Below, in pieces: positions 9,601 through 32,350 of a stretch of DNA of 39,799 bases. Each line of letters opens with the position of its first letter. Position 1 is the first letter of the stretch. Made by a program: the position numbers and the translations under genes. The notes under the pieces are model-generated. The model searched no databases, was not told the DNA's origin, and was given only the letters and a program-made list of their open reading frames with translations. Source of the DNA: an uncultured Bacteroidota bacterium (lineage in GTDB: Bacteria; Bacteroidota; Bacteroidia; Chitinophagales; LD1); contig CAIXBT010000237.1 of NCBI GenBank assembly GCA_903917755.1, positions 1 to 39,799 on the forward strand, written 5' to 3'.

Positions 9601-12600
9601 CCAATCCTTTTTTGACGGCTCATACTTATGTTTCCCGCTGATCAGCTATTGCCCTGCTATGCAGCCCACCGTTGGAGTGCAGATACGCACTTACATTGAG
9701 CCGAAACTAAGCCTTGGATGCGACACCTGCAAGATACCACTTGCAAAAGTAGGTACAGGTATTCACGTGCTGTGCCCCGGCTGCATCACTCCGGGCATAC
9801 AGATTGTGGGGTCAAGCATCGAGCGGATGAATTTTGGCTTGCCCGACATCAACGATATTGGCTATGCCGATAATACTACCCCGATCACCCCTTTTAACTA
9901 TGCACAATTCGGCAACGTAAACAGAGGCATCGCTATGGTGGGTGATACCCTGAGAAGCTATACCATGGAAGATTTTGTAGATGGTAACGATACTTCGGGA
10001 TTTACTTATGCGGGATGGGACAGCTTCTGGACCGCGCATGGTGATAGTAATGCTTACTTCAAATACCTTTTCCGCTATGTCAATATGCCCTATTCACGGG
10101 ATACGGATATGAACCTCCGGCTTATCATGGATACGCTTTACTATACTCCGGCTGGCAGTTTGGTGCCCTATGTTATACCGCTTCCTATAACATCTAATTA
10201 TGCAGTACATAGCGGGGACAACTTCATATTCCGGCTGAACATAGACAGTCTACGCGATTTGCTAAATGACAGTACCATTTCATTTAAACCAGGGGACAAA
10301 TACAGGTTTTGCTCTTATTATGTGATCTGCGGTAATTTCTCTATTCCGGCGGGTTCGAATAACCTGCAATACGAGTGTACAGCAAATATATTGTCCTACT
10401 ATACCACTCCGTCCTATCCAGGATTTGTAATGCCAACTTATGAGGTCGGGGATTACTTTGCTGCAAACATGGGTACCTCCGGTGACATCAGCCATGACAG
10501 CATAGTCACACCGGAGACAAGCATCTATTACCTTTGTGTAGGAGCTGCACCGGTATTTTATGATTGTTATGTATCATACAATTCAAGATATAATAATTAT
10601 AGTGACTATAATAACGCCGAAACGCGGTGCGTGAAACCATTATATATGGGCATCTCAGCAGCGATACTCGGTCCCAATTCAGATCCTAGTAGTTATTATT
10701 TTGACAACTTCCCTTACGAGTTCCGGCCTATTCCAGGTCTGACTTCGGGTGCTGACATTGTCATTAACGATAGTACATCCCCTTATTCCTTTATGATCAA
10801 GTCCCTCGGTGGTTGCTATACAATGACTCCGAGCTATACCTATACAAAACTCTTTATCCATCCTAGTTCATCAGGAGGAGCAACACAGTTATCGATGGAT
10901 ACATTGACTTCAGGGTTTTACAGCAGAGCGGCGGCTCCCTATGAACGTTATTCTTTTCCATCACTCTACACGTATGCCAATGCTCTTAATGTTCCAGCTC
11001 CAAACAATTACCACGGTCCGCTCAGAATCGGGGATGAGTATTTTCAACAGAATATGCAGTTTCTTATAACAGCACCGGTATGCGCCGGATGCCCTGATAC
11101 TTTGTATGATAATACTGATCTTAAGTTTGAAGCCATAGTAGTGCCGTCTGTCTCTGCATGCAGTAATGTTACTGACACTTTTTTCAGTAATGCTTCTAAC
11201 TCAACACTAGGAGGAGGGCTGATCCTTCATAGGCCAAAGGCAGAGCTTTGGCCACAGCCACTCTCTGCCACACCTCTTGCAGATACAAGTTCCTTTATGA
11301 TCCCACAGGTGTTGAACATAACACAGGACCATCCCGATAACCTATATATCTATATCAATACTGCGAACATTCCGCCATGCCTGTCCATTGACAGCATTGT
11401 ATCCATTGACAGTGCCACTGGAAGTAACCACGATATACCCGTCTATGGAAAGGGAGTAAGACCAATTAATGTGGGAGGCTACCTGTTGTTTGATATAGGA
11501 TTCTCCCTTGCAGCAGGCAGCTACCAGAAAGTTCGCGACTCGATTTATTATAATGCTCAGGACTCACTTAAATTCTATTTCCATTGGACCTGCTGCCCCC
11601 CAAATTTTGACAGCGCCCTTTACCTGCACCTGCCATTCATGCTGAACTGGCAATGCGTCAATTTCCCGACCACACTGCCTGACAGTGCCTGCCATATTCC
11701 GGTGACTGACAACATACCACTGTTGATACAGCCTGCGGCCTTCGGCAATATTCCTGTAGTGATGCAGCCGGATACTTTCAGCAGTTGTGATACGCTCCAC
11801 TTCAGCGTCAGAATACAGTCCGTAGACTATGGGCCGATACATGGTATCACTAATATCCTGAACATGCCGCCGGGTCTGAATATAGTGCCGGGTAGCCTGA
11901 CGGTGAGTTACCAAAAAAACAATCATGATACAACCGTACACAGGACTTTATCCGGCGATAGCGTTTCCATACCGCCGATAGTTTTACATTTTCAGGATAC
12001 GATACTGCTCAAATTCTCCGCAGTGCCAACTTGTTCTTACGCGGGAGATGCGCCAACAGATATATTTTATGGAATCAGTTTCTGCGGTTCGCCTGTCAGC
12101 CCGGTCGTTGCTTTCCATTCGATGATAAACATTGGCAACCGTTGCGGTCCGTTCTTCAATCCCGCAACCGTCTCAAACCTGCCATGCTACGGCGATAGCA
12201 CGGGGCGGATATTTGTAAGCGCTTATGGCAGTGATACGATCTTTGATTTCTCCTGGCCGACAGGCATCGGATCAGTAGATACGGTTGCAAACAATTTTAC
12301 AGCGACTAATGTACATGCAGGTACTTATATTATTACTGTGACAGACCCAAAAAGGAACTGTTCCCAGAATGATACGGTTACCGTAACTCAGCCTGCCCTG
12401 CTGGGAGGTACGACGACCTTTGCCAATGTAGTTCCTGGCAACTGTTCCAATAATTACGCGACCGTTTACCCTTCCGGCGGGACGCCTGCTTATACTTTTC
12501 ATTGGAGCGGCGGATCACTGACTACCTCCGCAACCGATAGCGGCATGATAGGCGGCATGGTCTATATTGTCACGGTGACAGACATTAATGGCTGCACTGC

Positions 12601-15600
12601 AACGTTGAGGGATACGATGCCGACCCCTGTGCCCGTATCTATTACAGGAGATTCGTCGATATGCAGCGGTTCAACTGCAACATTAAACGCGGGTCAGGGA
12701 TTTAGCTCCTATGCCTGGTCGACAAATGCCAATACACAGGAAATATATCCTAACAGTTCAGGGACCTATTATGTTACTGTTTCCTTAAACAGTTGCCAGG
12801 CATCCGATTCATTCAAGCTAAGGGTATTTCCTGTCCCAAGTCCGATTGTAACTATAGCCGGGTATGACCTTTGCTCAAATGACACTGCCATTGAGTATGT
12901 TTTTGGGGTTTCCCACACACTCACTGTGCCCACTTACACATTAAGTCAGAGTAATTGTACTCAGGTCTGTTCGGGAAGCCTGTCAAGGATTGCTGTTTTT
13001 CTCTCTAATCCGGGGGACGCTGACTCAGTGAGTGTTGTCGGTGGAACTGCAACACTAATCTCTTCGCTTTCTTCAGATACCCTTATCTATGACATCCGCT
13101 GGGGTGCTGCCGGGCAGGGCAGTATTTTAGTCAATGAGATCAGCGCTGCCGGATGCCATACCCCTGTTATATTTTGCATCGATATATTACCTTCCCCTGT
13201 GGCAGGTTTTGGGATCATAGGCATGAATAATGCTGACACGGTCAATGTGTGCGTTAACAGCACGATCAATTTCAGTGATTCGTCTTTCATAGATTCAGCG
13301 AATATAAGTGCTGGCTCTGCTAATATTACATGGCACTGGAATTTCGGGGATGATTCCACTTCCACCCAGCAATCACCGACACACATTTATTCTGTGCCTG
13401 GCACCTATACTGTCTTACTGACAGCAAGTTCATCCTGCGGTTGTAAGGGTACGGACTCAATGATAGTGGTTGTCAGTGATGCTTCCGCAATGGATATAGA
13501 ATGTCCTTCTGTCCTGTGCAGCGGCGGTTCAGCGACATACACGGCTGCCGGTTGCAATAATGTTACCTGGGGTGCCATAGGCGGCAAAATTACCAGCTAT
13601 ACAGGAAGTTCCGTGACCATTACATGGGATAGCGTGGGCGGCAGTGGCTTTGGATATGTTATTGACACACCGGTTAGTTGCGGCACCTGCCATGCACCAT
13701 CTTCGGTAAAGATACCGGTCATGACACAAAATGCACAGATAAACGGGCTGAGTACTATCTGCCCAAACATTCCGAATTACTATAGCCTTCCGCTTTGGCC
13801 CGGTGGTGTATATCACTGGTCCCTCGTGAATGGTTCACCGAACCCATCCGTTTCCATGCTTAGCCCTAATAATGACTACAATGTACTTGTGAAAGCCGCT
13901 ACCTATGGGACTTTCACATTAAAGGTCAAATATACCGACCCCGTTGCAGGTTGCAGTGACTCATCCTATATCACCGTCAGGGTAACGGGTAATGTGGTTG
14001 ATTCTGCCAGTCCGCTTGTGGGATGTACGGGAAATATAGTAACGTTTACACTGAGCAATAGTACAATCTCCAAGTGGAGCATAGTCAGTCCTACCGGGGG
14101 CATCGATACATTTGGGGGTATAGCCTCCAATTCAGTCACCTATACCCCTGACACAGCGGGTAATTATACAGTTAACCTGATAAGTCCCAATGTTTGTGTA
14201 AGCGCACCGCTGATCTATCATGTGGATCAGACACCAACATTGAGGGGATCAGTCATTAAAGGCCCTGACAGCGTCTGTCGCAATACTCCTTATACCTATC
14301 AGGACAGTATACCAGCACCGACTGGAGTACGATATATCTGGTCGCTTCCAAATGTAAGTGATGGTGTAATAGTCGGGTCCAATACGGGGAACAATGTAAT
14401 TGTTAAGTGGACAAATACTGCCTATGCGGCTACATGTATGCTTAAATTGAATGCTGTGTCCACTCTGGATACGAACTGCGTAGATACTGCTTCAAAGACT
14501 TTTATTGTGCACATCATCGAACCTGATTCTCTTTTCACATATCCGTTGACTGTTTGTGCTAACAGCGTATCAAGTGCTGTGAGCGCGGTATCACATGTAC
14601 AGGATTATTATACATGGTCGTTTACCCCATCTAATCTTGCATCCTGTGTAAGCGGTTACGACCACAGCATTCATCCGCTTATTCAGTTCAATAACGTGAC
14701 GACACCTACTACTGTGACTATCACGCTAACAGTGACCCGTTGCAATAAAACGGTGTTCAAGAATAATACCGTAACCATCATACCTGTGCCTACCGTATCA
14801 GTGACGGCTGATACGCCATTCTGCCCGCTTAGTACCAGTGTTTTTGTGGCTCATCCATCAGCAGCATGGCCTCATACAACTTACACGTGGGCACTGAGTA
14901 ATGGTGATACTGTCAACACAGGCGTCAGTACAACGCTGAATTATGTTTTCCTTGATACTGGTTCATATTGGGTGCGCGTTACAGCACACTTTGCAGATAC
15001 CTGTATAGGCAGTATCACATCTGCAAACGACAGCTTCCTGATCCGTCGTTGCGGGTCGGGTATAGGCGGATCAAGTGGCACAAGCGGCGGAACAGGCGGA
15101 ACAAGTGGCGGCGGAAGCCCCTGCACAATTACTTTCGGTACTCCGGTCATCTATGTGAACCCATGTAATGACAGTGTATCAGTCAGCGATACCTACTCAC
15201 CATCAGGTACTGTCCTGTCGCAGTCCTGGGCGCTTGACTCTGCGCGATATTTTCTGGTAGGCACTCCTACTATGACGACAATCACTTCCGGGTCTGCTTA
15301 TCACTTCCGGGTCAATCACTCCGGTCACTACCCGCTCATATATACGGTGACGCTTGTGGTAGCAGGTGATACTATGACTTGCTCTGCGCTTATCGATGTA
15401 CTTGTTCCACTCCACGTAGCATACAGCTATAAGGTAGAATGCAACAGCGGCAATAATGGTTATGTCCTGCACCTGATGGACAATTCCGATTATGTTGGGA
15501 CAGCCCCGATATTCCAATGGGGTAGTGTTCAATCTATTGCAGGTCTGCCAGCCAGTGGGGCGTCTGTGACCACCGGCGATATGACGCAGTTCTATTATCA

Positions 15601-17623
15601 AATGTATCACAATGTTATAGAAAGCCCTTTCAGCTGTCAGGTGAGGTTTAGCGTGCTAACACCAACATTCCCGACTGCTGCATTCACTTATATCGATACG
15701 CCGCTTTCGGCAGGGTTTAACCGCCGAACAATTTGCGAAGGCTTCTCGATCAGGTTGCAACCTACGCAACTACAAAACCCGCTCTGGACCTACCACTGGC
15801 AAGATCATCATGATGGAACTGATATTATTTATTACAATCCGGCTAAGGAATATAAATTTAGTGATGTTAATCATCCCGGTCAGAACCCTCAATCAATTAC
15901 ACTTACAGTCACAGATATCTATGGCTGTAGTAATGTAAAATCTGATACCAATTTTCTTATTACTGAGAATCAGTTAGCAGGCTATGTTGGGCCATTAGCC
16001 AACTTGGCACAACCTGAAAATGCAGACTATTTGTGTCCAAGCGGCGGGTCGTTTAACTTCCAGTATATTGTGACTGGTGGTGGTAGTGCTACCATGTGGA
16101 ATTGGTACAATGCAGCCACCCCGTATCTGAACAGAGGGCATCTTGGATCTGCACCTATATCTGGGCCAGATGGCAGGTATTTATGTATTGTTTCTGATAA
16201 TAATGGCTGTCAGAATATATCCAAACCAGCCGGTGTGATACAAACCTTGCCTATGCCACCTGTTATTATCACCGGTCCTCAGAGATATTGTGCGGGAGAT
16301 ACCGTAGTCCTTACCGCTACATTAGTAGATGGCATGAGCTATAGCTGGAGCATGCCCGGTTACACCTATGCCGGAGGCAATGTATGGAGTATCCCTAGCT
16401 TGGCAGCGGGTAGCTATACAGTCACGTTGAACTATACTTATACCTTTGCAAATTCGGGGACACCTCCTAAAACATGCAATCAGAGCACTACTTTTAGTTT
16501 CAGGGTAGATTCTATGCCAATAGTTGTGGCGGTGATCGGCAGTGTCACTTGCAGCCCATATACCGTGAACCTCAATGCTTATGGTACTTTATCTACTGGC
16601 TACTCATGGAGCAATCAGGCTATTACCCAAAACATTCAGGTGTCGTCCGGTGGTGACTATCGTGTCTGGCTTACATCCGGTCTCTGTAAGGCACATTATG
16701 ATGTACAGGTTCCTGATGATCCTTCGCTCCTGATACAGTACGCACCATACGGATGCTATACATATGGTTGCAGGGCCATCGATTCGGCAGGGGTGGAACT
16801 GACCGGGCCGCCTAATACTATCTTTGCCCACTGGTCCTGGAACGTCAGCGGTAGCCCCATACAGTCCGGTATCAATAGCTCTGTAACACCATACATAGCC
16901 CACTATGCGGGTGACTATTCCCTGACCCTGTCTGAGGACATAAGCGGCTCGTACTATTGCGCCGCTACCTCGCCACTAATGCAGGTAGCAGCTTCTCCTG
17001 TACCCTGCCCTGTGCTCTGCGCGATTGGTGCGTCAAGTAGAATAATCACCTGTACCGGTGATAGCAATATAGAAATCAGGGTAACTAACGGCTCCTATGC
17101 CTATGATACATACAACCTGACCAGCCCATCTGGTAATTTCGTCGGGGTTACGCCACCGCAGATCGGTCCGCCGGGACATTATACCTATATCTTTGCCACT
17201 TTTGTGCCCAACCTGGGTGTGAGCGGCAGTATATTTGTGGTGATAACGGTAGTAGATTCATCAGGAAGTTGTCAGGATACTCTGCATATAAACCTGATGG
17301 ACTGCAAGTATGAAAAATCAAAACCAGTAAAGGATAGTACAGTTCTCGGCAAGATATTGCTGATGCCAAACCCCGCCTCGGATCTTGTGAAAGTAGTTTA
17401 CAGTACAGGTCCGACAAACGACCCGCTGCCGGTTGGAGAAACGCTAACCTTATCGATCACGAACGTATCGGGACAACTGATAGAACAGCAGGCGCTCAGT
17501 AATATATCAGGTATGGTAACTATCAATGTATCTGCTATGAAAGCAGGGGCATACTTTGTAACGCTGAGCAAAAACCATAGTCCTGTAACAACAGATAAGC
17601 TGGAAGTACTATCGAACAAGTAA
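3665..17623 (+). CDS. Giant T9SS-secreted adhesin with tandem Cys-rich N-terminal repeats
   Basis: A 4,652-residue surface protein. Residues 1-20 form a signal peptide (cut near VRA-IS). Residues ~24-1,060 are tandem Cys-rich modules beginning CDSL or INCAxADS. From ~1,060 there are Ig-like segments with the pattern CxGxTATLTA...YxWS...GTYxVT, and a long stretch (about 1,200-2,830) of unrecognised domains rich in Cys, Tyr, Asn and Asp. SprB-like repeats (CYGDSTG...AGTYIITVTD) lie at ~2,835-2,990. A PKD domain (WHWNFGDDSTST...PGTYTVLLTAS) lies at ~3,215-3,265, a Gly/Ser/Thr linker at ~3,795-3,820, and more Ig-like modules follow. The last ~95 residues are a T9SS sorting tail (LMPNPASDLVKV...GAYFVTLSKN). 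Such proteins usually serve adhesion or gliding; the ligand is unknown. The frame is uninterrupted over 14 kb, arguing for selection. A strong terminator follows. Confidence 0.9.
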   Translation: MRLIITSLLVCFLFSAEVRAISFCDSLSTALTNYNSQYPGNGSLDNLVWSMDNAFGWTHYDSTSGYYVYSDGVYWYGQITACGLSFPSFINCAHADSVLNAFYIQYPQWRYNCAPAIWVSYLNNHGGANGYWNSEQNWKLLLGICSIPYPAIDTPLTKCDSLADAVGLYSISYPVGSDYNTFTNTLNGLWGYSNTLNDWRMAYAACGDSFPLFINCALADTVMNHFYSAYPQYTSHAPAFLWSNYLNQNSPTPTGYMYYSTQDWISLLDWCGIGYPAPDTLANFCDSLKVADSLYIHLYPAGASPNQFINLINSELGTYNSYTGWASIMGGCGIACPHTIDCARADSFMRAFKSANPLDSNHCAPFLWVNYLNSNNLQGGNYWYSAQDWMSMLNCCGINYPAPDSLSSYCDSLQAAVSVYNNTYPCGSQSWVYLNFMNETFNSWGYDSSGRWINNSLQSWYSQTNDCGFGCPHVINCSFEDSVMNAFHTAYPQYAVHAPTFVWTAYLNTAKSGVSYTTQDWTTLLGCCSVPLPAPDTMNNFCDSIQTVVNLFNQQYPNGTNEWTFTGLLYNYLGGWHYDSTAAQYINYTDLTWFTKIKSCNISCPNIVNCSIVGSAMDSFRAQYPQYDSAAPSAVWTDYLNEKNAGSDNNGNQWTFQPRQWVGLLVCCNVMPPSPVALASHCDTINTILDNIPGIGTVNLNSDYILNALNSNFDWQHYDSASGLNVPNTFSYWYSQLQQCGDSCRQIVSCDSINAAIRELSSFQLSHDSTVTYPLPFVEAYLGFKFGNYQFDQATWGSILRCCNPPSVNYNDTVLSHCDSTQLVRFALQYQVQTDSCLPIWLYNFLLSQDGDTANMYQLCSELVSCNMQCLPYCSGSLASSCDSVSSVYYVYQQVLASEPGHPSGDAGLLQTAYLILYGQSLSSDQIIPKIIACDSNACVAVEIPQSQAEQYFSSYSGCIPIRVFTTLMNATSGLNFNYAKWSSMFDHCGNARPIVCDSAYSLCDSVMEAYGLTNIIIAANGGTSDSAGMLSMVFSAYFGRSISALNASIMQSMCNPLCDSFVASVSVNNQNICAGTTATLTATGGPGYLWSTSDTTASIHETTAGTYSVTITNSSACTASVSGNVTVTSIPYPPAAPVFQSICSDSTFNFVFDDVSAWGDNLQWSYNSSFVPANTEYAEYDSYIIDPFTITVPGDSSVTIWFRTITSPAGCLSDSVSVILETNRLPIQRNIYAVDTLVPRDSTTTIVVPNSQTGILYTLQIGYTIVASASGTGDTIYLVTPPIDTPTIIDVYSTNTGSGCQRHLYAGRYSSYSRVDSISDIYVTVSHSAPVLSCQADTLYLSVTNNTSSTVDSVVLNLLINNPDFSCANTAINSHLGNRAHTPPSVNVSGSSYKIGLDSIPADSTWYFSMVMFTACAEIPNSEPVSGGVVVPKNDTSNRIYVWVSGPNDTVGVNNQANVTAINPYHITLDSILYPIFDVDLPNTTGFDSVGGIYTYQSGSLNRYNGCVALGDTFTRRSYFINKGSAIFTGGINIRDSMTCDGLSLIRAKIYYSNKTVILSSADSAKLLGRGYEHNLSDDGDTVGISSDLILEETFVVRGCLGAACESKIILKWGCDTTNLCKIQIPTPYTYVTYNCKQPVFLISRILPVSNYNGNPDAYWDSTCINTSTKWEFEVQNADTSSTTTLNNVHVVLNKGVLGSYSFINWSSFRMGFRDSIYGNALPASDSLSYKLTLLTSHISDSLIHYTSACLSNPNIDSPILSLDMRIARLKRGDKFFFSFYTYQCCPSDSELFNNPFRMNHWTLNAYGFYCGETGGDSVVAKPLDKPTANPPYYASTIFHDSDQPNAISPYAHNQGNDFGLTQVFTPSLSTMNKDETDTFCIRNLALNSVAFTDYQLLFQHGYNNGASGPSFNLIVDISTQTGLSVNPAGRVHISGHGYTWTGTVLSSNAFFTEVAFDIHTLGLVDPAILGPNGALAFQSFFDGSYLCFPLISYCPAMQPTVGVQIRTYIEPKLSLGCDTCKIPLAKVGTGIHVLCPGCITPGIQIVGSSIERMNFGLPDINDIGYADNTTPITPFNYAQFGNVNRGIAMVGDTLRSYTMEDFVDGNDTSGFTYAGWDSFWTAHGDSNAYFKYLFRYVNMPYSRDTDMNLRLIMDTLYYTPAGSLVPYVIPLPITSNYAVHSGDNFIFRLNIDSLRDLLNDSTISFKPGDKYRFCSYYVICGNFSIPAGSNNLQYECTANILSYYTTPSYPGFVMPTYEVGDYFAANMGTSGDISHDSIVTPETSIYYLCVGAAPVFYDCYVSYNSRYNNYSDYNNAETRCVKPLYMGISAAILGPNSDPSSYYFDNFPYEFRPIPGLTSGADIVINDSTSPYSFMIKSLGGCYTMTPSYTYTKLFIHPSSSGGATQLSMDTLTSGFYSRAAAPYERYSFPSLYTYANALNVPAPNNYHGPLRIGDEYFQQNMQFLITAPVCAGCPDTLYDNTDLKFEAIVVPSVSACSNVTDTFFSNASNSTLGGGLILHRPKAELWPQPLSATPLADTSSFMIPQVLNITQDHPDNLYIYINTANIPPCLSIDSIVSIDSATGSNHDIPVYGKGVRPINVGGYLLFDIGFSLAAGSYQKVRDSIYYNAQDSLKFYFHWTCCPPNFDSALYLHLPFMLNWQCVNFPTTLPDSACHIPVTDNIPLLIQPAAFGNIPVVMQPDTFSSCDTLHFSVRIQSVDYGPIHGITNILNMPPGLNIVPGSLTVSYQKNNHDTTVHRTLSGDSVSIPPIVLHFQDTILLKFSAVPTCSYAGDAPTDIFYGISFCGSPVSPVVAFHSMINIGNRCGPFFNPATVSNLPCYGDSTGRIFVSAYGSDTIFDFSWPTGIGSVDTVANNFTATNVHAGTYIITVTDPKRNCSQNDTVTVTQPALLGGTTTFANVVPGNCSNNYATVYPSGGTPAYTFHWSGGSLTTSATDSGMIGGMVYIVTVTDINGCTATLRDTMPTPVPVSITGDSSICSGSTATLNAGQGFSSYAWSTNANTQEIYPNSSGTYYVTVSLNSCQASDSFKLRVFPVPSPIVTIAGYDLCSNDTAIEYVFGVSHTLTVPTYTLSQSNCTQVCSGSLSRIAVFLSNPGDADSVSVVGGTATLISSLSSDTLIYDIRWGAAGQGSILVNEISAAGCHTPVIFCIDILPSPVAGFGIIGMNNADTVNVCVNSTINFSDSSFIDSANISAGSANITWHWNFGDDSTSTQQSPTHIYSVPGTYTVLLTASSSCGCKGTDSMIVVVSDASAMDIECPSVLCSGGSATYTAAGCNNVTWGAIGGKITSYTGSSVTITWDSVGGSGFGYVIDTPVSCGTCHAPSSVKIPVMTQNAQINGLSTICPNIPNYYSLPLWPGGVYHWSLVNGSPNPSVSMLSPNNDYNVLVKAATYGTFTLKVKYTDPVAGCSDSSYITVRVTGNVVDSASPLVGCTGNIVTFTLSNSTISKWSIVSPTGGIDTFGGIASNSVTYTPDTAGNYTVNLISPNVCVSAPLIYHVDQTPTLRGSVIKGPDSVCRNTPYTYQDSIPAPTGVRYIWSLPNVSDGVIVGSNTGNNVIVKWTNTAYAATCMLKLNAVSTLDTNCVDTASKTFIVHIIEPDSLFTYPLTVCANSVSSAVSAVSHVQDYYTWSFTPSNLASCVSGYDHSIHPLIQFNNVTTPTTVTITLTVTRCNKTVFKNNTVTIIPVPTVSVTADTPFCPLSTSVFVAHPSAAWPHTTYTWALSNGDTVNTGVSTTLNYVFLDTGSYWVRVTAHFADTCIGSITSANDSFLIRRCGSGIGGSSGTSGGTGGTSGGGSPCTITFGTPVIYVNPCNDSVSVSDTYSPSGTVLSQSWALDSARYFLVGTPTMTTITSGSAYHFRVNHSGHYPLIYTVTLVVAGDTMTCSALIDVLVPLHVAYSYKVECNSGNNGYVLHLMDNSDYVGTAPIFQWGSVQSIAGLPASGASVTTGDMTQFYYQMYHNVIESPFSCQVRFSVLTPTFPTAAFTYIDTPLSAGFNRRTICEGFSIRLQPTQLQNPLWTYHWQDHHDGTDIIYYNPAKEYKFSDVNHPGQNPQSITLTVTDIYGCSNVKSDTNFLITENQLAGYVGPLANLAQPENADYLCPSGGSFNFQYIVTGGGSATMWNWYNAATPYLNRGHLGSAPISGPDGRYLCIVSDNNGCQNISKPAGVIQTLPMPPVIITGPQRYCAGDTVVLTATLVDGMSYSWSMPGYTYAGGNVWSIPSLAAGSYTVTLNYTYTFANSGTPPKTCNQSTTFSFRVDSMPIVVAVIGSVTCSPYTVNLNAYGTLSTGYSWSNQAITQNIQVSSGGDYRVWLTSGLCKAHYDVQVPDDPSLLIQYAPYGCYTYGCRAIDSAGVELTGPPNTIFAHWSWNVSGSPIQSGINSSVTPYIAHYAGDYSLTLSEDISGSYYCAATSPLMQVAASPVPCPVLCAIGASSRIITCTGDSNIEIRVTNGSYAYDTYNLTSPSGNFVGVTPPQIGPPGHYTYIFATFVPNLGVSGSIFVVITVVDSSGSCQDTLHINLMDCKYEKSKPVKDSTVLGKILLMPNPASDLVKVVYSTGPTNDPLPVGETLTLSITNVSGQLIEQQALSNISGMVTINVSAMKAGAYFVTLSKNHSPVTTDKLEVLSNK
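3734..6850 (+). repeat. Tandem Cys-rich module array within the adhesin
   Basis: About 16-18 modules of roughly 55-70 residues alternate between two types. Type A begins CDSLxxAxxLYxxxYP and ends WxxxxxxCGxxCP. Type B begins INCAxADSVMNAFxxxYPQY, continues APxFLWxxYLN, and ends QDWxxLLxCCGIxYPAPD. An A+B pair spans ~130 residues. The first five pairs are clear; later copies (after nt ~5,700) are progressively divergent and shorter. A Cys near each module start and one or two near its end suggest disulphide-closed units. I do not recognise the family. Confidence 0.75.
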
Positions 17624-20254: not shown

Positions 20255-21205
20255 TTAATCTAATAACTCAATCAGGTCAAAATCACTATCCAGACCGAGA
20301 TCATTAAATACCAGGTGTCTTTCATAGCCCCTATACTTCACCCCATCCTTATTGTAGGTGTAATTTTCAGTACCGAAATTCTTTAAAATTGTAGCGAGCA
20401 TAGTTGAGTCAACTTCATTATCCAAGCGGTGAATGAATACCTTAACAAGTTCTTGAAAAGGGATTTCCTTTACTTGTATGCCATCAATGGTATCTATCAA
20501 TCTGCAAGCCGGATTTCTGGTGATGATCCATACCTGCTTTTCCGAGCAAGTGTCATTGAATAAAAATCGATTTTCCTTGAACTGACGGACATATAACTGT
20601 ATTTGCTTTTCCTTTGTTATTAGAAAATTGTCCATGATGGTTGCGTCATAAATTACAGCGAGATCATTGATCTGAAAGTAGCCGTCAGGCATACCGCTAT
20701 TGTGTTCCTGCGGGACTTTGCGTATGTCATGAATGCCGAGTAAGCGAAGCAGGAAAAAACAGTTCAGTTCAAAACTGAGCCAGTCACAGGTAGCCATGTC
20801 TCTGCAAAACGGCGGCAATGAATGTTCGGCATCTAATTGCTCTGCATCTGCATTGTCGAAGCTAAATATAACCTTTGAATTATTTTCATACCAACCATTG
20901 GGATAGGAGGTAAAGATCAGCGGACAGAGAAACTCTTTGAGATCGGTCACATCAAAGCGCACTACCCTTTTACCATGAGCAGTACTCTCTTCAAAATTCT
21001 TAGCGTAGCCCAGCCAGCTTCTTTCAAATATACCAGTGTGTTTTTCCCTTTTAATAAAGAGTGTCAGTACTTGATCCGGATATTTTTCTGAATGTCGCTT
21101 GAATTTGATCGCATTTCCTGAAAAGTGAGCATGTCCCTTTTTCGTTAGCAGACAGTCCCAGTGATAATCCCAATCAGACACCATAATGTATTGAATGTCT
21201 CTCAT
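20255..21205 (-). CDS. FokI-like nuclease-fold protein with possible PUA/EVE-like N-terminus
   Basis: A 316-residue protein, last gene of the mobilization operon, 117 bases after the relaxase. The C-terminal half resembles the FokI/AlwI group of PD-(D/E)xK nucleases. It has a helix with Glu (FELNCFFLLRLLGI, E146) and PDG at 173-175. A strand ending in Asp (DLAVIYDAT, D187) follows, then KEKQIQLYVRQ and a late WIITR strand. In FokI the pattern is PDG...VDTK. Here the position of the catalytic Lys appears to be Thr (DAT), so cleavage activity is uncertain. The N-terminal ~100 residues (WDYHWDCLL, HFSG, DQVLTLFIKREKHTGIF, RVVRFDV) look somewhat like a PUA/EVE base-reading domain. That part is a weak inference. 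A role as a defence cargo or modification-dependent nuclease is plausible but unproven. No methyltransferase partner is present. Confidence 0.5.
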   Translation of the reverse strand: MRDIQYIMVSDWDYHWDCLLTKKGHAHFSGNAIKFKRHSEKYPDQVLTLFIKREKHTGIFERSWLGYAKNFEESTAHGKRVVRFDVTDLKEFLCPLIFTSYPNGWYENNSKVIFSFDNADAEQLDAEHSLPPFCRDMATCDWLSFELNCFFLLRLLGIHDIRKVPQEHNSGMPDGYFQINDLAVIYDATIMDNFLITKEKQIQLYVRQFKENRFLFNDTCSEKQVWIITRNPACRLIDTIDGIQVKEIPFQELVKVFIHRLDNEVDSTMLATILKNFGTENYTYNKDGVKYRGYERHLVFNDLGLDSDFDLIELLD

Positions 21206-21322: not shown

Positions 21323-22324
21323 TCAAAGATCAATGTCGTAGTCCATATCAGGTTCATCTATGTCATCCATAGTGTCATCCGTCTGATCTTCCTCTTTGTT
21401 TTCATCCTCCTTTTCGTCTTTGGGTTCTTCATATTTTGTTTCATCAAAGCTTCGTTCAATACTCATTTCATTTTCCAGTTCCACATCTTTTTCCTTTTTA
21501 TCAAGCTCATCTCTGAATACCTGGATTCCACGGATTGCTTGATCTCTTATATCCATCTCCCGGAGGTGCCTTTCATCGAAGCCAAGATGCGAGAAAGTAT
21601 GCTTCCGTTCTCCGCTCATGACCCCGCGCTCGGAGCCGTTTCGGGAGTATGTTTGTAAGCCCTGTTCACTGAGCCGGTGCATAAAGTCGGCTCTGCTAAG
21701 TGACTTGTTATAACAGGCTTCTATGGTTTTGCTTATGCGTTCCTTCTCCGAAGGAGCTTTTGTTCGTTTCTTTAACTGGTATTCTCGGTCTTTGATCTGC
21801 CGCGCTTTATCCTTTTGCTTCTTGCCATGCTTTACTAGGCTATTGGATAAAGCGGAATAACGCGCCATTTGATAAGCCTGTAGCTCTTTTTTGAATAAAG
21901 CAAAATCCTCTTTGGATATGCGAAGTGATCTTCCGGTCTGTATTTCCGTGCCGCTGAAGCAAAAGTGGATATGGATATGCGCCTTGTCATAGTGTGGCAC
22001 AGCAATACACATAGCATTTGGATTGCGAAGCTCAATATATTTGCGTGTCAGATCTTCGAGCATGGCTTTAGATATCTTACCTGTATCTAAATTCGAAATA
22101 GACATGATTTCATGATACAGCTTTACGGAGTTGGAGCGTTTGATCAGTCTGCCGGCCTCGTTAGCTTCAAAAGCCCTGACCCACTGGTCAGGGCTTGTTC
22201 CTTTAATGTTGTGTTTGATGACAAAGCTGTCAGCCTTTGTCATGCTGCCCTTCTGCTCCTTTAGAAAGTAGCTGATCAGCTGGCGGTATGTGGCTGTCTT
22301 GCGGGTCTTGGATTTTATAACCAT
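21323..22324 (-). CDS. Relaxase (mobilization nuclease)
   Basis: A 333-residue protein that nicks DNA at an origin of transfer. The metal-binding histidine cluster HIHIHFCFSG (H116, H118, H120) is motif III of Bacteroidota MobA-type relaxases. The N-terminal TYRQLISYF (Y13) carries the probable catalytic tyrosine, and LYHEIMS (H71) fits motif II. The last ~65 residues are extremely acidic (runs of Glu and Asp), a natural tail for interaction with a basic partner. It overlaps the accessory gene upstream by 95 bases in another frame, so the two are translationally linked. The family call is firm; the subfamily is not decided. Confidence 0.85.
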   Translation of the reverse strand: MVIKSKTRKTATYRQLISYFLKEQKGSMTKADSFVIKHNIKGTSPDQWVRAFEANEAGRLIKRSNSVKLYHEIMSISNLDTGKISKAMLEDLTRKYIELRNPNAMCIAVPHYDKAHIHIHFCFSGTEIQTGRSLRISKEDFALFKKELQAYQMARYSALSNSLVKHGKKQKDKARQIKDREYQLKKRTKAPSEKERISKTIEACYNKSLSRADFMHRLSEQGLQTYSRNGSERGVMSGERKHTFSHLGFDERHLREMDIRDQAIRGIQVFRDELDKKEKDVELENEMSIERSFDETKYEEPKDEKEDENKEEDQTDDTMDDIDEPDMDYDIDL

Positions 22325-22871
22325 AAGTGGAAAGAATGGATTTAAGAAGCAGTAAAGTGTTGGGATTGCGTCTAATGTTTTCCATGATCAGTTCTTTAAG
22401 GCTACGCGTCTGATTTAGTAAAGTATTGATGCGATTTTCAGTAATGGTCAAAATTGACTCCACATTCTCGTATGTCCGGCTTATGACAAGCCATCCTTTA
22501 CCTTCTTTCTGCCGGATGGCATCTAGTTGGTTATTGCACTGCTGTAATACCTGCAATATCTCGGACACAAGGCTGCGATGCGGGATAACAATTATTAGCG
22601 CCATATCTGCCCGGACACAGCTTCTGATATAGTCTTGCAGACCATACCCCTTTTCTTTGGCGTTTAAGCGAACATGGTTTATCTCGTCCGCAGGAAAAGC
22701 CACCGCTATTTCACGTTTCTGCACTGTCCGGCTCTTCTTTTTTCGGGCCTTATCATACTCTTTCCAATACTGTTTTTTAGTGGCTTCTATCAAAGCCTCA
22801 TCTTTGCTATCCAATACCCCGCGACTTTCTAAATACTGCAAGAGCCCTGATTGTTTAGGTATGCGTCTCAT
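22230..22871 (-). CDS. Relaxosome accessory protein (MobC/BmgB-like)
   Basis: A 213-residue basic protein between the coupling ATPase (4 bases upstream) and the relaxase (overlap of 95 bases). Residues ~50-90 (KREIAVAFPADEINHVRLNA, then GLQDYIRSCVRAD) fit the ribbon-helix-helix domain of plasmid mobilization accessory proteins. The first 50 residues are rich in Lys and Arg, and helices follow to the end. By family it would bind the origin of transfer and help the relaxase. The name is by position and pattern only. Confidence 0.7.
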   Translation of the reverse strand: MRRIPKQSGLLQYLESRGVLDSKDEALIEATKKQYWKEYDKARKKKSRTVQKREIAVAFPADEINHVRLNAKEKGYGLQDYIRSCVRADMALIIVIPHRSLVSEILQVLQQCNNQLDAIRQKEGKGWLVISRTYENVESILTITENRINTLLNQTRSLKELIMENIRRNPNTLLLLKSILSTYGYKIQDPQDSHIPPADQLLSKGAEGQHDKG

Positions 22872-22875
22872 AGGC

Positions 22876-24342
22876 TTACTGAACGAGTGCTACTTCCCCC
22901 TCTGATAAAGTACCTTTGATCTTAGGTGCCGGAATCTGTGAGCGGAGTTTTAAAAATGGATGTTTGTAAACGGGTGTCATGCGTAGAAGGATAGGTTTGT
23001 AATTGCCGCAGATAAATATGGCACGGTCTTTATCAAGGGTTCTGATCTCATCAGGTTTTTTCAGTTCCCTAATCTTTCTCCCTTTTTCGTCCGTGTACTC
23101 ATATTTTCCGAGCTGCGCTGAAAGTTCTGTAGCGGTGGCATGTGAGACACCTCCAAAGTACACCTTGCCATAAGTATTGGAGCGTATGCTTTCGGCTTGC
23201 TGTTTGCCATATACATCAACTATCTGTTGATAATCCTGACAAATAAGCATTAATCCACACTGATATTTTCTGATGTTGGAAATTATTACATTTGTATTTG
23301 GCATATACAGCGAGGAAAATTCATCAAGGATGTAATAAACAGGCAGGTCGGTCTTGCCCGGCAATGTTGACATCAGCACTTTGGATAGCTGCTCAAAGAA
23401 AAGTGATGTCACCGGACTATACACTGCCATATCTCCGACATGGCAGTGTATAAAGAGAGCGGTTTTGCGACTACGTATCTTATCAAGGTTGAGCGTATCA
23501 ACCGAAGTTACTTTTGCGACATCGGGATCGGTAAAGATTTGAAGTGCAGCTAAGCAGGTAGCCTGTATGCCTAGGCGCACCTTATCATCGAATGATAAAA
23601 AGCTTTTGTATTCATTGATGAGTTGAGCATTTCCCGTCTTGGCGATTACCTTGTCCACAAGCTTGTGATCGGCACTGAGCATTTGTACAAGGTGTCTCAC
23701 GTTGGCTAGGTTGCGGTATTGTATATCTTCCGAGAGCAAGGCTCTCATGAGCATGGTCATCAGGGTCACACTTTGCAGACTCCAGAAGGGGTCACCGGTA
23801 CCTTTGAGTGTATTGCGAACCAGCATATGAGCGATCTTATTACAATCACTTACCGACTCGATACGAGCCATTGGATTGTATCCATTGCTGACGGATGGTT
23901 TGGAGTAATTGACGGTGATGATCTCGTAACCTTTAGATTTCAGATAGCCGCTGGAACTCAGGTAGAGCTCAAAACTCGGATCATTAATGATAAGACTGCC
24001 TTCCAGTTCCAGTAAAGATGGTAAAACGCAACATTGGGTCTTACCAGAACCACTTGATCCGACAATTAAGGCATGCATCATACTGGCTTTGGTACTGAGC
24101 TTGCGTCTGCCGTCTATACAAAATCCATGATTGGAAGTGTTGAGTACTTCGTCAGGGCTGATGAATTCGGCGCGGTACTTATGATCCTTTTCAGACGAGG
24201 CCTCGATCACAAAGGTTAGTATTTGCGATGCAAAGTAGACGGTTTCCTGAATCGCAGGAATAAGGTATGCGCGTGAAAAGCGCATCACCTGATCCGCAAA
24301 TTCGATCAGTGATCTTTTGAGCTGAGTGATTTTTCTATCCAT
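22876..24342 (-). CDS. Type IV coupling ATPase (TraG/VirD4 family)
   Basis: A 488-residue protein from the ATG at 24342. The ORF is open 44 codons further upstream, but that part is a shadow of the 53-residue membrane protein in another frame and is low in hydrophobic residues. The Walker A motif GSSGSGKT is at about 96-103 and Walker B YYILDEFSS at about 336-344. The sequence LICQDYQQI and a FGGVSHATA-type stretch follow, as in VirD4/TraG/TraD proteins that dock relaxosomes to a secretion pore. Unusually, its own N-terminus (MDRKITQLKRSLIEF) has no clear two-span membrane anchor. The small gene it overlaps may supply one. Confidence 0.85.
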   Translation of the reverse strand: MDRKITQLKRSLIEFADQVMRFSRAYLIPAIQETVYFASQILTFVIEASSEKDHKYRAEFISPDEVLNTSNHGFCIDGRRKLSTKASMMHALIVGSSGSGKTQCCVLPSLLELEGSLIINDPSFELYLSSSGYLKSKGYEIITVNYSKPSVSNGYNPMARIESVSDCNKIAHMLVRNTLKGTGDPFWSLQSVTLMTMLMRALLSEDIQYRNLANVRHLVQMLSADHKLVDKVIAKTGNAQLINEYKSFLSFDDKVRLGIQATCLAALQIFTDPDVAKVTSVDTLNLDKIRSRKTALFIHCHVGDMAVYSPVTSLFFEQLSKVLMSTLPGKTDLPVYYILDEFSSLYMPNTNVIISNIRKYQCGLMLICQDYQQIVDVYGKQQAESIRSNTYGKVYFGGVSHATATELSAQLGKYEYTDEKGRKIRELKKPDEIRTLDKDRAIFICGNYKPILLRMTPVYKHPFLKLRSQIPAPKIKGTLSEGEVALVQ

Positions 24343-24467
24343 GAGGTGATAATTTTGAGTGTTCCGATAAGTATTTTTCCGACAATGAGGACAACTATAA
24401 GAAAAGCGTTGCCGACCAGTTTTAGTATCTGTAAGAAGAGGTTGCCTATTATTTCTGCTGTGTTCAT
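24306..24467 (-). CDS. 53-residue membrane protein overlapping the coupling ATPase start
   Basis: Read from ATG 24465-24467 to TGA 24306-24308 it gives MNTAEIIGNLFLQ, then a hydrophobic stretch (ILKLVGNAFLIVVLIVG, then KILIGTLKIITSW) and a polar tail EKSLSSKDH. This predicts one membrane span or a hairpin at about residues 10-40. It begins nine bases after the vWA-like gene ends and overlaps the first 37 bases of the coupling ATPase in another frame. That layout suggests translational coupling. It is likely the membrane partner of the ATPase. Confidence 0.65.
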   Translation of the reverse strand: MNTAEIIGNLFLQILKLVGNAFLIVVLIVGKILIGTLKIITSWIEKSLSSKDH

Positions 24468-24476
24468 GTGGCATGG

Positions 24477-25202
24477 TTAATTGGTGAGGAGATTAGGACC
24501 GATAATGACAGTTGCGCCTTTTGCCTGAAATATCTTTGCCCAGATACCAGCCATGAGCAAAAAGCGTTTCTCAAGTTCAGGAGACGAGGTGTTATAGATC
24601 ATGTAAACTTTAATGCCTTTGAGGGACTCCAAGGACAACTGCCGGGCAAAGAATGACTGGACTTTTTCAGGCGAAGACAGGACTTGGTTAAAATCTGTAT
24701 CACGGTATACAGAAAAGCTGTCCGTGTTCTCCTGACAGTCGGTATAAAAGATAGCTTCCTTAGTATGCACTTTCAAAGCACTGAGATAGTTCAGCTGATG
24801 CACCATTACCGCATATATGACGGATTGTGGTCGGCCGGTATCTACACTCACAAGATGGTTCAGTGTGTCAAAGATTTTCTGATAGTTATCCTGAAGCAGT
24901 TTACTGCGTTTGGCAGGATTGCCCATCAGTGGAAACTCTGCCGGTATAGAAAGTGAAATGATCTTGCCGTTTTGAAGGTTGCTGAAAGTTGAAAAACGGA
25001 CATTGGTCTCAGACCATTTAGAACTGATCTGAGCGATATGACTAGGAACCTCGGAAGTATCGATATTTAGTTTGATGTCATCGGTAATATCTACCATGAC
25101 CACGAAAGCTGCTTTGGTTTGATTCAGGTAGTAGCAATAACCACCACCTATAGCAGCGACAGCCAAAATGGCTATCGCTGCAAGGAGGATATACTGTCTC
25201 AT
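24477..25202 (-). CDS. Membrane-anchored vWA-like protein of the mob operon
   Basis: A 241-residue protein with one N-terminal membrane span (residues ~4-26, ILLAAIAILAVAAIGGGYC). A strand and acidic loop follow (AFVVMVDITDDI, ~32-43). This resembles the first strand and metal site (DxSxS/T) of von Willebrand A domains, although the second Ser is replaced by Asp. Later features fit an alpha/beta sandwich: EAIFYTDCQEN, IKVYMIYNTSS and ATVIIGPN as further strands. Its start codon overlaps the upstream gene's stop (ATGA). Role unknown; probably envelope-side contact or regulation of mobilization. The fold is an inference. Confidence 0.6.
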   Translation of the reverse strand: MRQYILLAAIAILAVAAIGGGYCYYLNQTKAAFVVMVDITDDIKLNIDTSEVPSHIAQISSKWSETNVRFSTFSNLQNGKIISLSIPAEFPLMGNPAKRSKLLQDNYQKIFDTLNHLVSVDTGRPQSVIYAVMVHQLNYLSALKVHTKEAIFYTDCQENTDSFSVYRDTDFNQVLSSPEKVQSFFARQLSLESLKGIKVYMIYNTSSPELEKRFLLMAGIWAKIFQAKGATVIIGPNLLTN

Positions 25203-31024: not shown

Positions 31025-32350
31025 ATGGAAGACTATGCAATAAAAGACATTCCGCACGGCATCGATATATCTGATATACTGTCGCGAAACTCTATAGACC
31101 TGACTCCGGATAGTCTGGACCGTGTGGTGGATGCGATAGGCGATGCCAAATATGTACTGCTCGGCGAAGCCTCTCACGGCACACATGAATACTACAGCTG
31201 GCGTGCCAAACTCAGCAGGAAGCTCATCATCGAAAAAGGTTTTTCATTCATAGCTGTGGAGGGTGACTGGCCGGATTGCTACCGTGTGAACCGCTATGTG
31301 AGAAACTATAACGATGCGGGCCGGACTGCCGTAGATGTGCTGCACAGCTTCGATCGCTGGCCTACCTGGATGTGGGCCAACTGGGAAGTGGCGGCACTCA
31401 TAGACTGGATGAAAAGATACAATGAGAAGCAGAGCCGCGATAAGAAAGCAGGCTTCTACGGGCTCGATGTGTACAGCCTCTGGGAGTCGCTGAATGCGAT
31501 CATCAGTTATCTCGACAAGGTGGACAAGTGTGCCAAAGAAATAGCCATGAAGGCATTGAGATGTTTCGAACCATACAACGACAAGGAAGGAACGACCTAT
31601 GCACAGGCTACCCGCTATATACCCCTGAGCTGCGAAAAAGATGTGCTGGCACTGCTCATGGAGATAGTGGGAAAGATACCGCAGTACAATACGGATCATG
31701 AAGCGGTGCTGAGCGCAGAGCAAAATGCCTACGTGATAGCCAATGCCGAAAAATACTATCGCACCATGATGAGCGCGGGCCCTGAGTCGTGGAACATACG
31801 CGACCGGCACATGGTCAGCACACTGGAGAGGATCATGAGGTTTCATGGCAAAGAGGCCAAGGGCATCATATGGGAACACAACACGCACATAGGCGATGCA
31901 CGCGCCACCAGCATGTCATCTGAAGGTATGCTGAATGTAGGTCAACTGCTGAATGAGCAGCATAAGAATGAAGTCTATTCGATAGGCTTCGGTTCTTATG
32001 AAGGCAGCGTAGTGGCGGGCTACAAATGGGGCGATGAGATGCATGTGGTCCATGCGCCTAAGGCTGCGGAGGGCAGCTGGGAACACTTTCTGCACGGGCA
32101 GTCTCCGCGCGACAGGATCATATTCATGGGCGATGAAATGAAAAAGGTTTTCGGCAGAAAGGTGTACGGACATCGCGCCATAGGTGTGGTCTATGACCCG
32201 AGACATGAGCGCCGCGGCAACTATGTGCCCAGCATCCTGCCCATGCGCTATGATGCATTCATCTATATCGACAGGACCACGGCCCTGAACCCGCTGCATA
32301 TCAAACCTAACGGCCATGAGATACCGGAGACCTATCCATTCGGCATGTGA
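31025..32350 (+). CDS. Erythromycin-esterase-family protein
   Basis: A 441-residue protein of the erythromycin esterase superfamily (EreA/EreB and succinoglycan-related proteins). Signature parts are LLGEASHGTHEYYSWR (45-60; E48, H51 and H54 are the usual active-site residues), FIAVEGDWPDCYRVNRYVR (75-93; E79), WNIRDRHM and IIWEHNTHIGDAR. Most chromosomal members are not macrolide resistance genes, and their natural substrate is unclear, so resistance should not be inferred. The divergent hydrolase/phosphoribosyltransferase pair and the Hsp20 downstream form a stress-type cassette that recurs in many bacteria. Confidence 0.85.
   Translation: MEDYAIKDIPHGIDISDILSRNSIDLTPDSLDRVVDAIGDAKYVLLGEASHGTHEYYSWRAKLSRKLIIEKGFSFIAVEGDWPDCYRVNRYVRNYNDAGRTAVDVLHSFDRWPTWMWANWEVAALIDWMKRYNEKQSRDKKAGFYGLDVYSLWESLNAIISYLDKVDKCAKEIAMKALRCFEPYNDKEGTTYAQATRYIPLSCEKDVLALLMEIVGKIPQYNTDHEAVLSAEQNAYVIANAEKYYRTMMSAGPESWNIRDRHMVSTLERIMRFHGKEAKGIIWEHNTHIGDARATSMSSEGMLNVGQLLNEQHKNEVYSIGFGSYEGSVVAGYKWGDEMHVVHAPKAAEGSWEHFLHGQSPRDRIIFMGDEMKKVFGRKVYGHRAIGVVYDPRHERRGNYVPSILPMRYDAFIYIDRTTALNPLHIKPNGHEIPETYPFGM

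What the first reader, a model, noticed from the sequence alone, without database searches (positions are those of the whole stretch)
24306..24467. Hidden 53-residue membrane protein in an overlapping frame: a split coupling protein?
Seen: an ORF MNTAEIIGN...SSKDH with a long hydrophobic core overlaps the first 37 bases of the coupling ATPase gene. The ATPase itself, from its likely start at 24342, lacks a plain membrane anchor. Known: VirD4/TraG proteins normally carry membrane spans in the same chain. Inference: the anchor has become a separate small protein, translated in a coupled way. It would be missed by most gene callers, which would extend the ATPase over it.
Basis: partly seen in the sequence, partly recalled or inferred. 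Interest (0 to 1): 0.6.

Follow-up and report, generated by a model that had tools for sequence, protein, structure and literature searches.

The report
Split membrane anchor of coupling ATPase
A tiny 53-residue membrane protein really is encoded across the start of a DNA-transfer motor gene in a Bacteroidota mobile element, is conserved in most relatives of that motor, and most likely supplies the membrane helix that such motors usually carry in the same chain.

Summary
A 53-aa hydrophobic ORF (24306-24467, minus strand) overlaps the first 37 bases of a coupling-ATPase (T4CP) gene whose start is at 24342. It is a real gene. In a clade of 41 Bacteroidota relatives, 38 carry a hydrophobic ORF at the same place; dinucleotide shuffles predict 0.74 where a stricter test finds 37 of 41. 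It evolves under purifying selection in its own frame (pN 0.37 against pS 0.75, no stops; other frames have stops and no constraint). In 33 of 38 loci the ATPase frame is closed by a stop inside the small ORF, so the long reading of the ATPase is wrong. Lineages outside the clade include T4CPs with membrane helices in the same chain (L015, L020). Best reading: a two-gene T4CP, with the first membrane helix as a separate, translationally coupled protein and a second, mostly weakened, helix kept on the ATPase. The kind is known (TraI/TraJ of pIP501), but here the break lies at a different place, in another lineage, and one common origin is rejected (AU p 0.02). Binding of the two products is inferred, not shown. 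Three of the 41 lack the small gene.

The parts
24306..24467 (-). Small membrane protein gene, 53 aa, one long hydrophobic helix; overlaps the ATPase start by 37 bases
22876..24342 (-). Coupling ATPase (VirD4/TraG-type T4CP), 488 aa, start at ATG 24342; N-terminal helix 2-49, then VirD4/TrwB-like ATPase core
   Evidence: Pfam PF02534 3.3e-58, PF12696 2.9e-20 (on the longer ORF); NCBIfam CD1115 family 226 bits, below its cut-off of 250; Foldseek to Cag-beta and TrwB; start supported by the conserved MDRK-like beginning and by stops just upstream in relatives
24343..24474 (-). Upstream extension of the ATPase frame (44 codons): open by accident, not coding in this frame
   Evidence: frame closed by a stop in 33 of 38 loci; no constraint in this frame
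24477..25202 (-). Conserved 241-aa protein with N-terminal hydrophobic segment, 9 bases upstream of the small gene
   Evidence: a like gene found next to the small gene in 30 of 38 loci; no Pfam, NCBIfam or PDB match
22230..22871 (-). 213-aa mobilisation accessory protein (MobC-like by position)
   Evidence: no family match, only sub-threshold Pfam matches; tblastn relative in 31 of 41 loci, of which the hit for the plus-strand T4CP of L053 belongs to another module
21323..22324 (-). Relaxase (MobA/VirD2-like nuclease domain)
   Evidence: PF03432 3.7e-13; directly downstream of the T4CP in 37 of 41 loci

Best explanation
The 53-aa ORF is a real gene and one half of a two-gene coupling protein. 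The usual VirD4/TraG protein has two membrane helices ahead of its ATPase core. In this Bacteroidota clade the first helix is a separate small protein and the ATPase keeps only the second helix, which in most members, the window included, has become too polar to be a plain anchor. The two genes overlap or nearly touch, so the ATPase is probably translated by ribosomes finishing the small gene, giving matched amounts. The small protein would sit in the inner membrane as one long helix, pair with the N-terminal helix of the ATPase and hold the ATPase ring at the transfer channel, where it hands over the relaxase-bound strand. Shown: the gene, its conservation and selection in its own frame, gene order, unsplit relatives. 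Inferred: membrane insertion, pairing, coupling, function in transfer.
For: Small hydrophobic ORF next to the T4CP start in 38 of 41 clade members, 37 of 41 against 0.74 expected in the stricter test. Over 10 pairs pN 0.366, pS 0.745, no stop in 512 codon pairs; the two other frames have 86 and 41 stops in 497 and ratios of 1.1 and 1.9. Two ungapped pairs (L011/L035, L065/L068) show a third-position excess reached in 0 of 20000 permutations. ATPase frame closed upstream in 33 of 38. 4-base ATGA-type overlaps in 7 of 38, mostly short gaps otherwise. T4CP N-terminus clearly transmembrane in only 4 of 41 (plus-strand T4CP of L053, L016, L072, L038). Unsplit T4CPs with membrane helices outside the clade: L015, L020 and the long L023. 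L015 starts 288 bases before the core, where the small ORFs start (218-329 bases in 36 of 38). AlphaFold: small protein one helix 3-51, pLDDT 92; ATPase N-terminal helix 2-49. Relaxase follows in 37 of 41. Published precedent: TraI/TraJ of pIP501 (PMC4981023, passages).
Against: L044, L045 and the minus-strand T4CP of L053 lack the small ORF and have no clear helix of their own, so the partner is dispensable in at least one lineage. The small protein's own helix is only marginally hydrophobic on a recalled insertion scale (+1.3 for the window) and has a basic residue in its middle in 28 of 38, so it may lie partly on the membrane surface. No sequence similarity ties the small protein to the first helix of the unsplit T4CPs; the link is positional. 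Outside the clade the picture is mixed: 3 unsplit, 4 with a larger upstream membrane protein plus an own helix, L039 with an 88-aa membrane ORF 94 bases upstream, L047, L048 and L054 with neither. No complex could be modelled.
Confidence: 0.75

Rival explanations
1. The small protein is a separate subunit of the transfer apparatus (VirB3/PrgI-like or a membrane adaptor between T4CP and channel) that merely sits beside the T4CP gene, not a detached part of the T4CP.
For: Small membrane proteins upstream of and overlapping virB4-type ATPase genes are known (PrgI, pNP40 Tra13; PMC8194271 passages; PMC12857230 passages). The small protein shows no sequence link to T4CP helices; its profile scores only 5% probability against T4CP N-termini.
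Against: In the loci found the neighbour is the T4CP, with a relaxase after it in 37 of 41; but the loci were found by their T4CP, so small genes elsewhere would have been missed. No Bacteroides-type VirB4 was found in the window's genome. This rival does not explain why the T4CPs of this clade mostly lack an own anchor or why the small ORFs occupy the place of the N-terminus of unsplit L015.
Confidence: 0.17
2. The long ATPase ORF from 24474 is right and the small ORF is a chance frame over it.
For: The long frame is open with an ATG in the window, L002, L004 and L005.
Against: It is closed by a stop in 33 of 38 loci and without ATG in one more; the shifted frames show no constraint; chance predicts 0.74 of 41.
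Confidence: 0.01
3. Programmed frameshifting joins the two ORFs into one normal T4CP chain.
For: The ORFs overlap in the window's subclade and end close together elsewhere.
Against: The relative frame is not conserved: 22 in one shift, 14 in the other, 2 in the same frame with a stop between; many pairs do not overlap at all.
Confidence: 0.02
4. The small protein arose by tandem duplication of the ATPase's own N-terminal helix (they end alike in the window: SSKDH and SEKDH).
For: Visible likeness of the two C-terminal ends in the window and some near relatives.
Against: Profile against profile gives probability 5.4%, score 14.8; the reversed control gives 12.3, column shuffles at most 9.0 in 40.
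Confidence: 0.05

Closest known systems
TraI/TraJ two-protein coupling protein of pIP501 (and the like pair of pMRC01)
   Same: Membrane protein encoded directly upstream of a VirD4-like ATPase without its own anchor; proposed to recruit it to the membrane (PMC4981023, PMC7434980, PMC12857230, passages). pMRC01 shows a 152-aa protein overlapping a 530-aa T4CP by 4 bases.
   Different: There the break lies after both membrane helices and after the HGSADWG motif, which sits in the upstream protein (seen in pMRC01); here the break lies before that point and the upstream protein is about 53 aa with one helix. The two groups are placed apart, with unsplit T4CPs nearer to the pMRC01 group, and one origin is rejected at p 0.02. 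The pIP501 sequences themselves were not examined.
VirD4/TrwB and Cag-beta coupling ATPases
   Same: ATPase core: Foldseek E 2.7e-19 to Cag-beta (8dol), 4.8e-15 to TrwB lacking residues 1-70.
   Different: Those carry their membrane helices in the same chain (recalled for TrwB and VirD4; review passages).
CD1115-family VirD4-like T4CP (NF045973)
   Same: Best NCBIfam match, 226 bits over residues 69-462.
   Different: Below the family's cut-off of 250; three Bacillota members examined are single-chain with hydrophobic N-terminal stretches.
TraG-TraJ pairs (T4CP plus accessory membrane protein of about 200 aa)
   Same: A T4CP needing a neighbouring membrane protein (PMC7434980 passages).
   Different: There the T4CP keeps its own membrane domain and the partner has up to five helices.

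Membership tests
VirD4/TraG-type coupling ATPase (T4CP) | VirD4/TraG ATPase domain with intact nucleotide-binding residues | tested here: met
   PF02534 3.3e-58; G98, G100, K101 invariant in 6 of 6 aligned
VirD4/TraG-type coupling ATPase (T4CP) | TrwB-like fold | tested here: met
   Foldseek matches to Cag-beta and TrwB, TM-score 0.57-0.65 by query; model pLDDT 79
VirD4/TraG-type coupling ATPase (T4CP) | N-terminal membrane domain in the same chain | tested here: not met
   best 19-residue stretch KD 1.25, insertion estimate +5.5 on a recalled scale
Two-protein coupling protein (pIP501 TraI/TraJ kind) | ATPase without own anchor plus membrane protein encoded directly upstream | tested here: met
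Two-protein coupling protein (pIP501 TraI/TraJ kind) | Break after both helices and the GSAxWG motif | tested here: not met
   window ATPase keeps a helix and the motif region; pMRC01 upstream protein holds HGSADWG
Two-protein coupling protein (pIP501 TraI/TraJ kind) | Common origin with pMRC01-type pairs | tested here: not met
   AU p 0.0206 against one clade, on a quick tree
Two-protein coupling protein (pIP501 TraI/TraJ kind) | Physical interaction and need for transfer | not testable with these tools
   needs bench work
VirB3/PrgI small subunit | Gene directly upstream of a virB4-type ATPase | tested here: not met
   neighbour is the T4CP; no TIGR03783 match in the window's genome; other VirB4 types were not searched

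The most novel reading that the evidence does not exclude
A second, independent fission of the coupling protein, placed between its two membrane helices, has been kept across a wide clade of Bacteroidota mobilisation modules: a roughly 50-residue microprotein replaces the first helix and forms a two-chain membrane domain with the weakened second helix of the ATPase, possibly arising from one frameshift in an ancestral single-chain gene.
Probability: 0.6. Interest if true: 0.6.

Novelty: new variant of a known kind. Interest (0 to 1): 0.5.

Why it matters
Coupling proteins choose which DNA leaves the cell, and what their membrane part does beyond anchoring is not settled. A natural case where that part is a separable 53-residue protein lets anchor and motor be tested one at a time. 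It also suggests that T4CP genes have been split more than once, at different places, and marks a conserved small gene without a Pfam or NCBIfam match.

Tried and rejected
Duplication of the ATPase N-terminal helix as origin of the small protein: profile comparison hardly above its reversed control. Programmed frameshift: relative frame not conserved. Relatives among viral contigs: none. Plasmid relatives of the clade: the best plasmid hit is only 29.6% identical (Sulfitobacter); its region gave no clear small ORF in the ORF list. Identity of the 241-aa neighbour: no PDB match up to E 0.1. Papers: no open-access paper on a split T4CP in Bacteroidota appeared in the six searches; this does not cover subscription journals.

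Limits: the trees are quick searches (SH-aLRT only) with long branches; one long outgroup row (L024) fell inside the clade, which is why I count 41 and not 42 rows. The tree, without the TraG outgroups, gives the 41 rows a support of 97. The 52 T4CPs of the tree are those found in 73 loci with a tblastn score of at least 140 bits after removal of duplicates. In one search one row (L010) was read out of frame because it has no ATG, and several N-termini were cut short by my start rule. In one search the T4CP start chosen by rule is not always the likely one. The insertion-energy scale and the metal-site remark under Noticed in passing are recalled. Counts (38 of 41; 37 of 41) differ because the thresholds differ.

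Full report
What is there. On the minus strand lies a compact operon: a 241-aa protein with a hydrophobic N-terminus (24477-25202), the 53-aa ORF (24306-24467), a coupling ATPase, a 213-aa accessory protein and a relaxase. The ATPase is a VirD4/TraG-type coupling protein (PF02534, 3.3e-58; Cag-beta and TrwB by fold). The small ORF starts 9 bases after the upstream gene and overlaps the ATPase by 37 bases if the ATPase starts at 24342.

Where the ATPase starts. Near relatives begin with a like sequence at the same place (MDRK, MARK, MDRDN, MDG), and their reading frame is often closed just upstream. In 33 of the 38 loci that have a small ORF, a stop lies in the ATPase frame within the span of the small ORF; one more is open without an ATG there; four, the window included, are open with an ATG.

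Is the small ORF a gene. I searched 198 related genomes, 396 of the order and 395 of the phylum, overlapping sets in part, plus named genome contigs. Of 52 non-redundant T4CPs with at least 140 bits, 41 form a clade with the window (support 97). Of these 41, 38 have a hydrophobic ORF, mostly 43-59 aa, that ends at or near the T4CP start. With a stricter rule it is 37 of 41, against 0.74 expected from dinucleotide shuffles; the six TraG-type T4CPs with a usable start had none. Over ten pairs the small frame has pN 0.366 and pS 0.745 without a stop in 512 codon pairs, whereas the shifted frames carry 86 and 41 stops in 497 and no constraint. Because those pairs were aligned as proteins, I checked four pairs of equal length without alignment: in two the third-position excess was reached in 0 of 20000 permutations, one gave p 0.008, and one strongly diverged pair p 0.12. 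The gene is real.

What it is. AlphaFold predicts one helix over residues 3-51 (pLDDT 92). The ATPase begins with a helix over 2-49 (pLDDT 60-74), a loose linker, and the core. The ATPase helix is not a plain anchor in the window; in only 4 of 41 clade members is it clearly transmembrane on the scale used. Outside the clade, L015 and L020 have membrane stretches in the same chain and no convincing small ORF, and L023 has a long N-terminal part. L015 begins 288 bases before the core, within the range of 218-329 bases at which 36 of the 38 small ORFs begin. The simplest reading is that the first helix has become a separate protein. A single frameshift in an unsplit gene with restart at an inner ATG would give just this picture; that step is inference.

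How it would work. The small gene ends at the start of the ATPase gene with a 4-base overlap in 7 of 38, a 28-40-base overlap in the window and four near relatives, and mostly a short gap in the rest. This suggests translational coupling and matched amounts. The small protein would hold the ATPase at the membrane and at the channel. A relaxase follows the ATPase in 37 of 41 loci. The window's genome, 96.7% complete, holds no other T4CP and no Bacteroides-type VirB4 (other VirB4 types not searched), so the module is probably mobilisable by another element's channel.

Against. L044, L045 and one of the two T4CPs in L053 have neither the small ORF nor a clear own helix; in L044 the ATPase gene overlaps the 241-aa-type gene directly. 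They form one branch (support 94), so this looks like one loss. Outside the clade four T4CPs have a 111-146-aa membrane protein upstream and an own helix, L039 has an 88-aa membrane ORF further upstream, and three have neither. The small protein's helix is marginal on the insertion scale. No direct evidence of binding exists.

What is known. The pIP501 pair TraI/TraJ was described as the first coupling protein made of two proteins (PMC4981023, passages), and reviews list a class of T4CPs without membrane domain (PMC7434980) and the proposal that TraI anchors TraJ (PMC12857230; passages read). In pMRC01 and Peribacillus the upstream protein (152 and 144 aa) holds two hydrophobic stretches and the GSA motif. 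In the tree these two join unsplit Bacillota T4CPs, and a clade of all split forms is rejected with p 0.02. So the Bacteroidota form works like the pIP501 pair but is, on this evidence, a separate and differently placed fission. I call it a new variant of a known kind.

Noticed in passing
window 24477-25202 and 30 of 38 related loci: A conserved protein of about 240 aa with lipoprotein- or anchor-like N-terminus and invariant D38, T40 and S127 in 27 of 27 aligned; the pattern recalls a metal-binding von Willebrand A site, but no Pfam, NCBIfam or PDB match was found.
   Followed up: partly
L017, L022, L049, L050: More distant T4CPs with an own helix have a larger upstream membrane protein of 111-146 aa that also ends near the T4CP start; perhaps another form of the same split.
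   Followed up: no
L044, L045, L053: One branch of the clade lacks the small gene and, in L045 and beside the minus-strand T4CP of L053, has a different gene in place of the 240-aa neighbour.
   Followed up: partly
L034: The upstream gene is a 578-aa ORF instead of about 240 aa, a possible fusion.
   Followed up: no
window 20255-21205: 316-aa protein after the relaxase with no significant family match and no relative found in the clade's loci, most of which hold only about 1.5 kb downstream.
   Followed up: no
window 3665-17623: An ORF of 4652 aa, not examined.
   Followed up: no
window 31025-32350: Erythromycin esterase family protein (PF05139, 6.9e-115) near a phosphoribosyltransferase gene.
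   Followed up: no
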